This document shows, one piece after another, positions 6,866 through 45,527 of a DNA stretch of 64,000 nt (the stretch's first letter is position 1; each line of letters begins with the position of its first letter). The position numbers and the translations under genes are program-made. This DNA is from Cryphonectria parasitica EP155 (lineage: Eukaryota > Ascomycota > Sordariomycetes > Diaporthales > Cryphonectriaceae), in assembly GCF_011745365.1 (NCBI RefSeq), contig NW_024468913.1, forward strand, positions 4,154,001 through 4,218,000, given 5' to 3'. Under the pieces are notes generated by a model. The model had not been told where the DNA came from, ran no database searches, and saw nothing but the letters and a program-made list of their open reading frames with translations.

Positions 6866-8097
6866 TGGTCAAAGAGGACTGGCTCCAGTGTATGTGTGTA
6901 TAAAAAAAAAATAAGAAGGAAAAGGGCCTTCGATATCAGGTAACTATTGTGAGCATCCCCGCTAGATTTCTGAGGGCCTTTCTTCTTCTCCTGATTTTGG
7001 CTGGGCAGTAAGTATTGGCAGATTGACTGGTATTAGAAGAACTGAATTATTCGCATCGCTAATTATTGCTGCTAAGTTATGGGATGATGATTAACAATAA
7101 GAAGTGGGCGGTAAAGTAGACTGGCATGCACTCGATGGGACCCAGAAAAGCCTCCTGTGATGTCGGTAGACAAATGTATGACTTGTCCTTGTAATTCCAC
7201 CATGTCCAAACACATCAAAGTAGGTAGGTATATTTGGGCGGACATACCTGCCCCGTGCTCCGCGCTCCGTATAATTCGCACTGATAAAAGATCCGAAGTC
7301 TTCCGCGTCCCGATCCGCTTCCGACTCGCAGTCCTCGTGTACTTCCTAGAAGGGCAAGTCGGCAGAACATAGAGCCGGTAAGCAGCAGTAGCTTCGCTCC
7401 TTTTCCTCCTCTCTGGTTTTCTCTTTCTATCAATTTGATAATTCCGCAAAACCAAGGTCGGCATAAGTTCTTCGCGTTGTCAGCTGATTGTGGATGCACG
7501 TTGCTGACTATCTGTGGAGCGTGTCTGCAGCGGTGGCCTCATGATTCAACAGCTGGCGTGACCTGGCCTACGGTCTCATTGAATTTGGTTTTTGGTTTTT
7601 ACTGGTGTTTCTGGTGGGATATTTACGACCCCCTCCAAGGTTGTCACACAGAAGAAGAGAAGAGGCCTTTCCATTTCGGGTGGTCGTGTCATTGAATTGT
7701 TCCCTGGGTAATTATTGAAAATGAAGACAGGCTTTCTTACTGGACTTAAACAACAAATCTATGGCTCATTGGCCAGCTGCACAGTACTTACAGTAATAGG
7801 CCTCTTGATACCGCATTACATCGGCACAGCTAAGCTGCTGCTCTGCTATGAGTGGGATGATTTCTGCTTCACAAAGATTGCATGCATGAGCTTCTACCCC
7901 ACTTCATCGTCTTGACAATGGTAAGGAATCAACACCACCGCCGTCGAGAAATAATACTCAAGGCCGACCTGACCAATCCAGCCGCTTGCAACATGAAATC
8001 TATTAGAAAGGTTCTAGAAATGGAAGAGAAAAGAAAAAAAAGCCACATCCGCCCAAGGAGAGTGGGCTATCTACTACTACTTCTACTACTCCTCCTC
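6866..8097. other. Intergenic spacer
   Basis: Several short open frames have no recognisable domain. The stretch should hold the promoter of the DUF1338 gene (start at 6865, minus strand) and the 3' region of the FAD monooxygenase gene (stop at 8098, minus strand). I see no repeat or RNA gene. Confidence 0.55.
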
Positions 8098-41604: not shown

Positions 41605-42868
41605 ATGCCAGGCCGATTTTGTCTGAGAGTATCGTCCATCTCACGGGCCATCACGATCTTCCTTTTAATCCCTACTCGCGCCGTATCGGCTCTATATCAT
41701 CACAATGTAGTGGCTGTGTGTCCCGCGATCCCAGCTTTCCAGATTCTTCATCCCACCGTGAGTAATGTTACTGCCTCTATCGGGATGAAGGATACATATT
41801 AATTGATGAATGAAAGTGTTCACTATCGCCAGGGCTGGAGATTTTCTCACCTGAGGATGAGGCAAGGCAAGGAAAGCCTCTATGGGAGGTCAAATTGTCG
41901 CCAGGAAAAGGTCGAGGCGTGTTTGCGTCACAGCACATCAGAAAGGGGACTCTTTTGCTAGCTGAGGAGCCCCTCGTGGAGGTGGTACTTCCTGCCCTCG
42001 TGGCTGGCAAGGGCTATGATCTGGCCGCCATGACCGCGGCCCTGCTGCGAGAATACTCGGGTCTTTCTCCACAAGGCAAGGTGGAATTCGACTCGTGCCA
42101 CCAGCACCGGTTCGAAAATGACAGGCGAGACGAAGAAGGGCGCTTGATGGTCATCCTGAGAAGCAATGGGTATACGATGGAAGACGCCACAGGCCGCAGT
42201 AAGGTGGCCCTGTACCCGAAGGCCTCCTTGATCAACCACTCGTGCCAGCCAAACGTTTTGAACGGCGATGCATCAGGAACTCGAAAGATCATTGCCATGC
42301 GGGACATCTTCCCGGGAGAAGAGGTAAGCCAATTTGAAGAACGCCTGCCAGGTCTCCAAGAAGCGACATACATGGGAACGGACTCTCTCCCGACTCGACT
42401 CTTGAAATGGTCATGGAAGAAATTTACTCACAGGAAGTGCCATTCTAGATTTCGACCACATACATTCCCTTACTGATGGACACTCCCAATCGCCAAGCTC
42501 GACTCCGCCAGTACGGATTCGCCTGCACCTGCGATGCTTGCCGGGCATCAGGATTGTCCGACCACCTGCGGATCCAAGCTGGGAACAACCTGTCGGAGCT
42601 ACAACAGGCTCTGACAGCGCCGATTATGATGAAGGATTCTGGGCTCCTGCTCCACCGAGCCGAAGACCTTGAATCCTTCTTTGCAGCACAGGGGTTTGGT
42701 GATTATCTCGTCAAGACGACCCGCTTAGCCCTTCAGTATGCCATCCGAGTGCGCAACAGCACGGCTGCTAGGACTTGGGCAAGAAAGCACCTCGAGAACC
42801 TCTCCATCATTGATGCCGAGTCGACTGAGGCAGAGAGCACACGTGAGATCGTAATGAATGGAATCTGA
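41605..42868 (+). CDS. SET-domain protein with signal-peptide-like N-terminus
   Basis: Proposed exons are 41605-41757, 41841-42323 and 42449-42868, encoding 351 residues. The introns are 83 bp (GTGAGT/GGAG) and 125 bp (GTAAGC/CTAG), both phase 0. The second intron restores FPGEE-ISTTYIPLL. SET motifs are GKGRGVFASQHIRKG, LINHSCQPN, the FPGEE/TTYIP strand and the post-SET-like YGFACTCDAC zinc knuckle. This is the SMYD/SET5-like class, not the H3K4 or H3K36 methyltransferase classes. The first exon reads MPGRFCLRVSSISRAITIFL followed by LIPTRAVSA, a plausible secretion signal, which would be odd for a lysine methyltransferase. The first exon is the least certain part. A start inside exon 2 is possible, but no in-frame ATG precedes the GKGRG motif there. 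Confidence 0.75.
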
Positions 42869-43458: not shown

Positions 43459-45527
43459 ATGGGTCTACACGACATCTTCGACTTTGACGAACCGGCCTAC
43501 CGCGCGAAATGCGCAGAGCGCTCGACGCCCAAGCTGCAGGAGGAGGAGATCAGGAAGCTCCGACAGCACTTTGCGACAAGCGCCTCGATCGCGCTCGGCC
43601 TGTCGCACGCGGTACAGACGGCAGGGCTCACGGTGGGCGTGTCAGCCTTTGGGCTGCGCCGGTACTGGATCGCCAAGCAGAAGCTCGCCATCATCCGCGA
43701 GGAGCTCACGCGGCGCGGGGTCGCCCTGCATGACATGACCAAGCGCGACGCGGGGATCCCACTGGGCGCCTCGCTGGCGGGCATGGGTCTGGGCGCGGGC
43801 GTCGGCCATCTCGTGGGCGACGTCGTCGCGGCACCGGATGTGCCGCTGCCCGGACCACATGGGGGCGGGGGCGCGGCGCTGCATCTCGTCAACGCGAACC
43901 CCGAGGACGCGGTGCATGGGTTCGTGCAGGGCCTGTCGGACCAGGCCAACGCGGTGGGGCAGGCGATCCACGGCGCGGTGCTGAGCCATGGCGCAGAGCA
44001 GCTGGTCACGTCGGCTTCTGCCGAGGCTGGCAGTGGTCATGCTGTCGGTTATGCCGCGGGCCTCGCCGCTGCCAAGAAGATGGAGGAGTTCCTGGGCGAG
44101 TGTGTCGGCGAGGCTGTCTTTGCCTACGCCATGGAGAAGCTGCTGGATCCGGAAATTAAGCTCGAGCTGAGGCTGAAGGGGAAGTGCAGCCGCCTGCAGG
44201 GTCCCTTGGGTCAATATTGTCACGGCTGCCAACGCTCCATCAGACATGGCACCTTTGCACGTGAGTGGGCGTCTCTCAAGATGATGACGATTTCTTTTCC
44301 CTTGGAGTTCCTTGCTGGTCATTCATTCATGAGGAAACTTTCCATTACTCTGACTGACTGTTGTTGTTCGGCGTGTTAAAACAGATTGCTGTCAAGACAC
44401 TGACGACTTCGATCTCTGCAAAGAGTGTCGTGATGCTGGAAGTAAATGCGCCTGTCCCGACCAGCCAATGCTAACCTTACAGAAGTGTGTTTCCGGTGAC
44501 GTGCTGAATTCCGAGAGAGGAGATGCAAGAAGGAGACTAGCGACGGTTGCAGAGATACGGTGTAAGGTCTGCGAAAAAGGATTAACCCAAGGACGGTATT
44601 ATTGTGAGTGGAAGAACTGCCAAATTTGGTGGGTTCCCAGAGAGCTGACTCTGTTTTGCGTGCTTGCAAAAATAAAAACAAAGACTGCCCTGAGTGTGAT
44701 GAAAAATCAGGACAGTTCGATCTTTGCGAAGATTGCTATTACCAAGGGCAGACTTGTGTCTCCCCTGATGAGCATCGACTTTTTGTCTATCTCAGAGCAA
44801 ACTTTGATCGAAGTCACCCGGACTTGAATTCGGACGTAACTGTCTGCGGTACTTGCAAGAAAAAGATCATGCAAGGTCCAGTATTCGGTGAGTACATGAA
44901 AACACAGAAGATTTTGAAGAAGAAAAGAGAAACGAGAAAAGAAGGAGCAGAGGGGAAGAAATGAAAACAAGGGAGCCGAGGAGCAAAGTGTGAGGGTGTT
45001 GTGCTTGGAAAATCTGGTACACTGCTGACAGCCTCAGCCTGCAAAACTCATGACCTGAACATCTGTGACCGATGCTATGAGATGGACAAAGCTTGTGGAG
45101 ACACTAGCCATGTACTATCTCGTCAGGTCATCTATAAGGGTGAGAAACACATCAAGAGGCAGCTCACGGAAAAGGACATGTGCCGATTCTGCAAAGAGAA
45201 ACTCAGTGAGGGCCCATTTTATTGTGAGTGCTCACAGGACCCTTAACCATAGAAACCACCCTCCTCCTTGGGTCAAGAGCTGATAATGATTGCGATCTTT
45301 TAGGCTGTAGCCAGTGTGCTGGTAGTGGTGGATACTATGATCTTTGTACCAGCTGTTACGTGAAGGGGGCTGGATGTGAAGACCGGAGTCACATTCTGAA
45401 CAAGTGCATACCGGCTACGGGACTTGCAAAGAGCCACCTGCATGATGTTCTGTCCGTGGACGGCAGGGACAGACTGAAGGGGTATCTGCAAGATCAGAAA
45501 GCGCGGTTCGGTAAACTACACCAGTAA
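43459..45527 (+). CDS. Tandem ZZ-like zinc-finger protein (four fingers)
   Basis: Five exons, 43459-44260, 44385-44603, 44684-44887, 45038-45223 and 45304-45527, give 544 residues. The N-terminal half has an amphipathic segment (TAGLTVGVSAFGLRRYW, about 55-71) and a Gly/Ala-rich zipper-like stretch (GIPLGASLAGMGLGAGVGHL), so membrane contact is possible. The C-terminal half holds four fingers: CHGC...CCQDTDDFDLCKEC, CKVC...CPECDEKSGQFDLCEDC, CGTC...CKTHDLNICDRC and CRFC...CSQCAGSGGYYDLCTSC. Each ends with a Cys-x(3-6)-His/Pro tail. Finger 3 lacks about eight residues between Cys3 and Cys5 and may be degenerate. All four introns are phase 1 and fall in the codon just before the third Cys. The acceptor of intron 3 (45037) is supported by a CTGAC branch site, but 44983 is an alternative. 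ZZ domains bind proteins or degrons; partners here are unknown. Confidence 0.82.

What the first reader, a model, noticed from the sequence alone, without database searches (positions are those of the whole stretch)
44221..45527. Four zinc fingers built from symmetric, phase-1 exons with introns at the same codon
In all four ZZ-like fingers the intron splits the codon directly before the third Cys, in phase 1. The internal exons of 219, 204 and 186 bp are multiples of three and each runs from the second half of one finger to the first half of the next. This is what tandem duplication of one exon unit would leave. It also means any internal exon could be skipped and still yield whole, chimeric fingers, so one gene could make one- to four-finger proteins. 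Fungal genes with such regular exon arrays are uncommon. The Gly/Ala-rich, possibly membrane-contacting N-terminal half adds to the novelty.
Basis: partly seen in the sequence, partly recalled or inferred. Interest (0 to 1): 0.75.

Follow-up and report, generated by a model that had tools for sequence, protein, structure and literature searches.

The report
Four-finger gene with repeated exons
A fungal gene encodes four small zinc-binding modules, each cut by an intron at the same spot, which is best explained by old copying of one module together with its intron; nothing found here shows that the cell uses this layout to make proteins with fewer modules.

Summary
A gene at 43459-45527 (+) has five exons. 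Its four GT-AG introns each split, in phase 1, the codon before the third Cys of one of four ZZ-like fingers; the internal exons are 219, 204 and 186 bp. The genome matches Cryphonectria parasitica EP155. The deposited EP155 model (405 aa) drops exon 2 and frameshifts finger 4. Relatives read as unspliced frames leave the family at the same codon, 12 of 12 at intron 1 and 8 of the 8 that reach it at intron 2. Fingers resemble the same-numbered finger of other species (46%) more than other fingers of the same protein (30%). So the array looks like an old duplication, with four copies in all full-length proteins seen, though the searches were capped. Skipping any set of internal exons keeps the frame (7 of 7) and the chimeric fingers score like native ones, but no call tests whether skipping happens. 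It is an uncharacterised member of the multi-ZZ kind and not Nbr1.

The parts
43459..44260 (+). Exon 1: start codon, Gly/Ala-rich N-terminal half (predicted helical, low confidence), first half of finger 1
   Evidence: conserved in relatives
44261..44384 (+). Intron 1 (124 nt, GTGAGT...CAG, CTGAC starting 35 and 31 nt before its end)
   Evidence: same place in 12 of 12 read-through relatives
44385..44603 (+). Exon 2 (219 nt, phase 1-1): second half of finger 1, linker, first half of finger 2
44604..44683 (+). Intron 2 (80 nt, GTGAGT...AAG, CTGAC starting 39 nt before its end)
   Evidence: same place in 8 of the 8 read-through relatives that reach it
44684..44887 (+). Exon 3 (204 nt, phase 1-1): second half of finger 2, linker, first half of finger 3
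   Evidence: the deposited model starts it at 44711
44888..45037 (+). Intron 3 (150 nt, GTGAGT...CAG, CTGAC starting 13 nt before its end)
   Evidence: one relative compatible (P0014)
45038..45223 (+). Exon 4 (186 nt, phase 1-1): second half of finger 3, linker, first half of finger 4
45224..45303 (+). Intron 4 (80 nt, GTGAGT...TAG, CTGAT starting 24 nt before its end); a second AG 7 nt downstream (ending at 45310) is the one used by the deposited model
   Evidence: one relative leaves at the same codon (P0014)
45304..45527 (+). Exon 5: second half of finger 4, C-terminal tail, stop codon
44218..44455 (+). Finger 1 (C254 to C291), split by intron 1; second zinc site degenerate (no fourth Cys, no final His)
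44561..44775 (+). Finger 2 (C327 to H371), split by intron 2; full ligand set
44845..45111 (+). Finger 3 (C395 to H433), split by intron 3; His at the place of the fourth Cys
45181..45392 (+). Finger 4 (C457 to H500), split by intron 4; full ligand set

Best explanation
This is one gene whose main product is, most likely, a single 544-residue protein with all four fingers: a conserved Gly/Ala-rich, predicted helical N-terminal half and four ZZ-like zinc modules in a row. The array arose long ago: a finger that already held an intron before its third Cys was duplicated in tandem together with that intron. The first step must have copied a whole finger with its intron; later steps could have gone by unequal crossing-over in the introns, which adds whole symmetric exons. 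The count has been four in every full-length protein seen, and the regular exons are a fossil of that history. The fingers probably work as a protein-binding array, as the ZZ modules of Nbr1 do with their cargo. Shown: gene model by sequence and conservation, phases, conservation of the array and of introns 1 and 2. Inferred: order of duplication, constitutive splicing, protein-binding role. The binding partner and the role of the N-terminal half are unknown.
For: Junctions and phases. Donor and branch-point-like motifs. 5 of 5 full-length relatives found keep four fingers. Intron 1 position in 12 of 12 read-through relatives, intron 2 in 8 of the 8 that reach it. Same finger in other species 46% identical on average, other fingers of the same protein 30%, other fingers of other species 29%; all 6 F1 and all 6 F4 group in the tree. 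In the gene only two short, weak two-copy DNA matches remain, as expected of old copies. A profile of 15 of the 24 fingers matches solved ZZ modules, best S. pombe Nbr1 at 6.6e-10, then KCMF1, dystrobrevin, CBP and HERC2. Foldseek with the model of the relative P0003 lists ZZ-bearing structures in its first seven places; the finger half is the better predicted part of that model, mostly above pLDDT 70.
Against: Pfam finds no ZZ hit in the window's own protein; the assignment rests on relatives and on the profile. In the tree F3 is not one clade and F2 holds 5 of 6, with low support at several nodes. Foldseek has 0 matches at E <= 0.001, best 0.09. Introns 3 and 4 are checked in one relative only. 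The protein searches scored only 7994 to 7997 candidates each and only proteins of 0.55 to 1.75 times the query's length, so relatives with other finger counts may have been missed. No transcript was read here, and the deposited model splices differently.
Confidence: 0.8

Rival explanations
1. The symmetric exons are used: internal exons are skipped, alone or together, so that the gene makes proteins with one to four fingers, some of them chimeric.
For: All 7 skipping combinations stay in frame. The 6 chimeric fingers score 47 to 67 bits against 45 to 68 for the four native ones, with a profile built from the 20 fingers of the other five proteins; 20 letter shuffles score at most 3.7. The deposited model joins 44260 to 44711 and so omits exon 2.
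Against: In-frame skipping follows automatically from four introns in the same phase and is no sign of use. The deposited junction is not a clean skip: it also cuts off the first 27 nt of exon 3, with the third and fourth Cys, and the same model frameshifts finger 4. Four fingers are kept in 5 of 5 full-length relatives found. Exon skipping is rare in Fusarium graminearum: 4 genes, where 231 genes were found alternatively spliced (PMC3577648, abstract and passages).
Confidence: 0.07
2. The introns were inserted independently at the same place of four fingers that already existed (parallel gain at a favoured site).
For: Nbr1 of the same genome has a ZZ array in one uninterrupted frame, so arrays without introns exist.
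Against: Same nucleotide in 4 of 4 fingers although the flanking bases differ (C|AT, T|AC, G|CC, T|GC) and none has the AG| exon end of a proto-splice site. In the other ZZ loci of this genome that could be read, no intron sits there: the ADA2-type finger on C3 has one four codons before the third Cys in phase 0, and the fingers on C5, C9, C2 (two loci), C1 and C4 are read through; at C9:1552848 no finger could be read.
Confidence: 0.08
3. The deposited 405-residue model is the real product: one chimeric finger without its third and fourth Cys, finger 3, half of finger 4 and a frameshifted end.
For: It is the public annotation (P0002). Its two differing junctions are GT-AG, and the model is reproduced exactly.
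Against: It removes zinc ligands of two fingers that the full-length relatives conserve.
Confidence: 0.05

Closest known systems
Fungal Nbr1 (autophagy receptor with up to four ZZ modules)
   Same: Several ZZ modules in a row; S. pombe Nbr1 ZZ is the best match of the finger profile among solved structures (7dd9); protein binding by ZZ modules is reported for S. pombe and C. thermophilum Nbr1 (PMC9233695, passages).
   Different: No FW domain or PB1 found by Pfam; other N-terminal half; the complete fingers end in Cys...His; each finger is split by an intron, while this genome's own Nbr1 (C9) reads through its fingers in one frame.
Deposited 'ZZ-type domain-containing' proteins of Cytospora, Lasiodiplodia, Neofusicoccum and Schizothecium (P0010, P0004, P0016, P0018)
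   Same: Same family: shared N-terminal half (weaker in P0018); P0004 and P0018 have four fingers.
   Different: P0010 and P0016, like the EP155 model P0002, break in the alignment and are probably mis-spliced predictions (inference).
ADA2-type ZZ finger (PF25299)
   Same: P0004, P0005 and P0018 pass its cut-off.
   Different: In this genome the C3 locus has one such finger, with an intron four codons before the third Cys, phase 0.
Phase 1-1 exon arrays of animal modular proteins
   Same: Symmetric exons of one phase that can be lost or gained in frame; excess of phase 1-1 exons in metazoan genomes is noted in PMC6547436 (passages).
   Different: There exon ends tend to match domain ends; here each internal exon end cuts a zinc module in half.

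Membership tests
ZZ-type zinc finger | Two-zinc ligand pattern C-x2-C ... C-x2-C ... C-x2-C plus a last ligand pair | tested here: met
   Met in fingers 2 and 4 of the window protein, partly in 1 and 3. Eight ligand columns invariant in a hand-picked set of 15 of the 24 fingers; the 9 left out are the window's fingers 1 to 3, P0003 F1 and F4, P0004 F1, P0005 F1 and F4, and P0018 F3, of which the F1s and the window's F3 lack a ligand.
ZZ-type zinc finger | Last ligand pair H-x-H (recalled consensus) | tested here: not met
   C-x(4-6)-H instead in the complete fingers; hence 'ZZ-like'.
ZZ-type zinc finger | Pfam ZZ or ZZ_ADA2 above the curated cut-off | tested here: inconclusive
   Window protein and P0003: no. 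P0004: ZZ 28.3 against 21.4. P0004, P0005 and P0018: ZZ_ADA2 above 27.5.
ZZ-type zinc finger | ZZ fold | tested here: inconclusive
   First seven Foldseek hits of the P0003 model are ZZ-bearing structures, probability up to 1.00, but E no better than 0.09; the sequence profile gives 6.6e-10.
Nbr1 | FW domain (PF16158) | tested here: not met
   Not found in the window protein; present in the C9 gene.
Nbr1 | PB1 domain | tested here: not met
   No Pfam hit.
Tandemly duplicated symmetric-exon array | Introns at the homologous codon and in the same phase in all repeats | tested here: met
   4 of 4, phase 1.
Tandemly duplicated symmetric-exon array | Copy number varies among relatives by whole exons | tested here: not met
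   Four fingers in 6 of 6 full-length proteins; the searches that found them were capped.
Alternatively spliced exon array | Exon-skipping junctions in RNA | not testable with these tools
   No reads available.
N-degron-reading ZZ module | Asp directly after the first Cys (p62-type pocket, recalled) | tested here: not met
   H, K, G and R in the four window fingers; Asp in three P0018 and two P0021 fingers. Not decisive for binding: the S. pombe Nbr1 finger with Asn there belongs to a protein whose ZZ modules bind cargo.
Membrane-spanning protein | Hydrophobic stretch of about 19 residues with mean hydropathy near 1.6 or more (recalled threshold) | tested here: not met
   Highest value 1.39 at residues 106-124 of the window protein, up to 1.52 in relatives; peripheral or glycine-zipper contact is not excluded.

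The most novel reading that the evidence does not exclude
The array is a working splice cassette: conditions change which internal exons are included, so the fungus makes a set of one- to four-finger proteins with chimeric zinc modules of different binding specificity from one gene. I know such devices from animals (recalled); the listings showed no fungal report of one.
Probability: 0.06. Interest if true: 0.65.

Novelty: new member of a known kind. Interest (0 to 1): 0.3.

Why it matters
It is a clean fungal example of a zinc-finger array built by copying an intron-bearing module, with exon ends that cut through the module instead of flanking it. It points to an error in a deposited gene model of the chestnut blight fungus. 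It also brings out a conserved, uncharacterised family (Gly/Ala-rich N-terminal half plus four ZZ-like fingers) that, by the named relatives, spans Diaporthales, Botryosphaeriales and Sordariales (orders recalled from genus names). If skipping were found, it would be a rare fungal device for protein diversity.

Tried and rejected
Paralogues in the same genome: searches with the window protein, P0018, P0021, PF00569 and PF25299 showed no second gene of this layout; these searches score only the best candidates, exon by exon. The weak hit at C5:1674078 (E 0.003, three stops) looks like chance. Nbr1 rejected for lack of FW and PB1. The third homologue search, with profile A4, found nothing new. 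N-terminal half: two predictions, both poor there, so it was not searched on its own for similar folds; the viral and pdb_via fold libraries were not used. NCBIfam gave only sub-threshold hits. Literature: (ZZ-type with Cryphonectria) 0 papers each; the listings (17 papers; 15 shown of 4,845; 9; 1; 6) showed nothing on this gene; PMC4324775 passages gave no usable exon-skipping number. Not done: a genome-wide base rate of same-phase exon arrays (no annotation, no file of this genome), any read mapping, any DNA comparison with relatives (only their proteins were at hand).

Rows and counts: of the 20 proteins found (P0002 to P0021, P0002 being the deposited model of this gene), 5 are full length (P0003, P0004, P0005, P0018, P0021), 12 are read-through frames, and 3 (P0002, P0010, P0016) are deposited models that break in the alignment. 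The finger comparison used the 5 full-length relatives and the window. Of the 12 read-through frames, 8 return in frame at Asp-Cys-Cys after intron 1, and the same 8 reach intron 2; P0013 appears to go on in another frame; P0011, P0012 and P0020 do not come back.

Full report
Where it is. The window is G000:C5:4154001-4218000 of a 43.8 Mb genome in 17 contigs. A deposited Cryphonectria parasitica EP155 protein, M406DRAFT_331524 (P0002), is listed with a longest contig of 4337670 bases, the length of C5, and its sequence is reproduced exactly by a splice map on the window. So I take the genome to be that of the chestnut blight fungus, strain EP155.

The observation. All introns are GT-AG with donor GTGAGT; these four are the only GTGAGT on the coding strand of the gene. 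Each intron has a CTGAC or CTGAT motif starting 13 to 39 nt before its end, against 22% of random 47-mers with CTNAY and 10% with CTRAY. All four junctions are phase 1, in the codon just before a Cys, and the internal exons are 219, 204 and 186 nt. Reading through introns 1, 3 and 4 meets stops; intron 2 has 80 nt, so its retention would shift the frame.

The fingers. The pattern is C-x2-C ... C-x2-C ... C-x2-C ... C ... H. In a hand-picked set of 15 of the 24 fingers, eight ligand columns are invariant. Fingers 2 and 4 of the window protein keep them all; finger 1 lacks the fourth Cys and the last His, and finger 3 has His for the fourth Cys. Pfam gives nothing above cut-off for the window protein or P0003, but ZZ for P0004 and ZZ_ADA2 for P0004, P0005 and P0018. 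A profile of the 15 fingers matches solved ZZ modules, best S. pombe Nbr1 at 6.6e-10. Foldseek with the model of P0003 lists ZZ-bearing structures in its first seven places, with weak E-values. 'ZZ-like' is the right name because the complete fingers end in Cys...His and not in the recalled H-x-H.

The relatives. One search found 17 proteins, including the deposited copy of this gene; one search added 3, none. Each search scored only its best 7994 to 7997 candidates, within 0.55 to 1.75 times the query's length. Five are full length (P0003, P0004, P0005, P0018, P0021), and all five have four fingers. Twelve are reading frames that run on into introns, which shows where the introns are: all 12 leave the family right after Phe/Tyr-Ala of finger 1; 8 of the 12 come back in frame at Asp-Cys-Cys; the same 8 reach finger 2 and leave it right after its Tyr-Tyr or Val-Tyr. 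They include frames close to Lasiodiplodia (P0015, P0017) and to Schizothecium (P0019; 70% identical to P0018), so the two introns are shared well beyond Diaporthales (orders recalled from genus names). For introns 3 and 4 there is one relative, P0014: it leaves finger 4 at the same codon, and its shifted frame is compatible with a phase 1 donor in finger 3. Two full-length 'lgn' proteins, P0003 and P0005, are unbroken where the other 'lgn' frames are not; they may come from spliced RNA, which I could not check.

The deposited model. P0002 joins 44260 to 44711 and starts the last exon at 45311 instead of 45304. That removes exon 2 and the first 27 nt of exon 3 and frameshifts the last exon, leaving one chimeric finger without its third and fourth Cys, finger 3, and half of finger 4. 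It breaks residues that relatives conserve, so it is probably a prediction error; I cannot exclude transcript support for it.

History of the array. Across 6 proteins the same finger in different species is 46% identical on average, different fingers of one protein 30%, different fingers of different species 29%. In the tree all six F1 and all six F4 group; F2 groups for 5 of 6; F3 does not form one clade (its four-species group has support 0.000) and several other nodes are weak. Only two short, weak two-copy DNA matches remain in the gene. This points to duplications older than the split of these lineages and to a count that has stayed at four in what was sampled. A one-finger gene has no exon that runs from a second half to a first half, so the first duplication must have carried a whole finger with its intron; unequal crossing-over in introns could add whole symmetric exons afterwards (inference). 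Parallel intron insertion is unlikely: exon ends at the four sites are not AG|, and the other readable ZZ loci of the genome have no intron there, the ADA2-type finger having one four codons earlier in phase 0.

Does it get skipped? All 7 ways of skipping exons 2 to 4 stay in frame, and the 6 chimeric fingers score 47 to 67 bits against 45 to 68 for the native ones and at most 3.7 for 20 shuffles. Both follow from the shared phase and the homologous cut and do not show use. Exon skipping is rare in Fusarium graminearum (4 genes; 231 genes alternatively spliced; PMC3577648, abstract and passages). No reads could be examined.

What it does. Most likely it is a protein-binding array behind a conserved N-terminal half. 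The analogy is Nbr1, whose ZZ modules bind cargo proteins (PMC9233695, passages). It is not Nbr1: no FW or PB1 found, and the genome has its own Nbr1 on C9. None of the four fingers has the Asp after the first Cys recalled for N-degron readers such as p62. The N-terminal half is 29% Gly+Ala over residues 1-240, with a highest hydropathy of 1.39; it is predicted helical, mostly with very low confidence. Its role is open.

Verdict. The splice-cassette reading is possible but unsupported. This is a new member of a known kind, of moderate interest as an evolutionary example and as a correction of a gene model.

Noticed in passing
window 43459-45527: The deposited model of this gene (M406DRAFT_331524, P0002) skips exon 2 and uses a tandem acceptor 7 nt downstream at intron 4; it is probably wrong.
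   Followed up: yes
window 41814-42868: Just upstream, a frame with a SET domain (PF00856, E 2.7e-11) and a following Cys-bearing frame without Pfam hit that could be its next exon.
   Followed up: partly
L014 1-2736 (G000:C1:2539542): A long open frame with at least two fingers of the same Cys-rich kind, a sub-cut-off SH3 match and no Pfam ZZ hit, no intron in the fingers.
   Followed up: partly
L002 478-3042 (G000:C9): This genome's Nbr1: FW domain and several ZZ modules in one uninterrupted frame.
   Followed up: partly
L004 (G000:C3:2090461-2090553): ADA2-type ZZ finger with an intron inside the finger, four codons before the third Cys, phase 0.
   Followed up: yes
window 44218-44455: Finger 1 lacks the fourth Cys and last His in the window protein, P0003, P0004 and P0005, while P0018 and P0021 keep them.
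   Followed up: no
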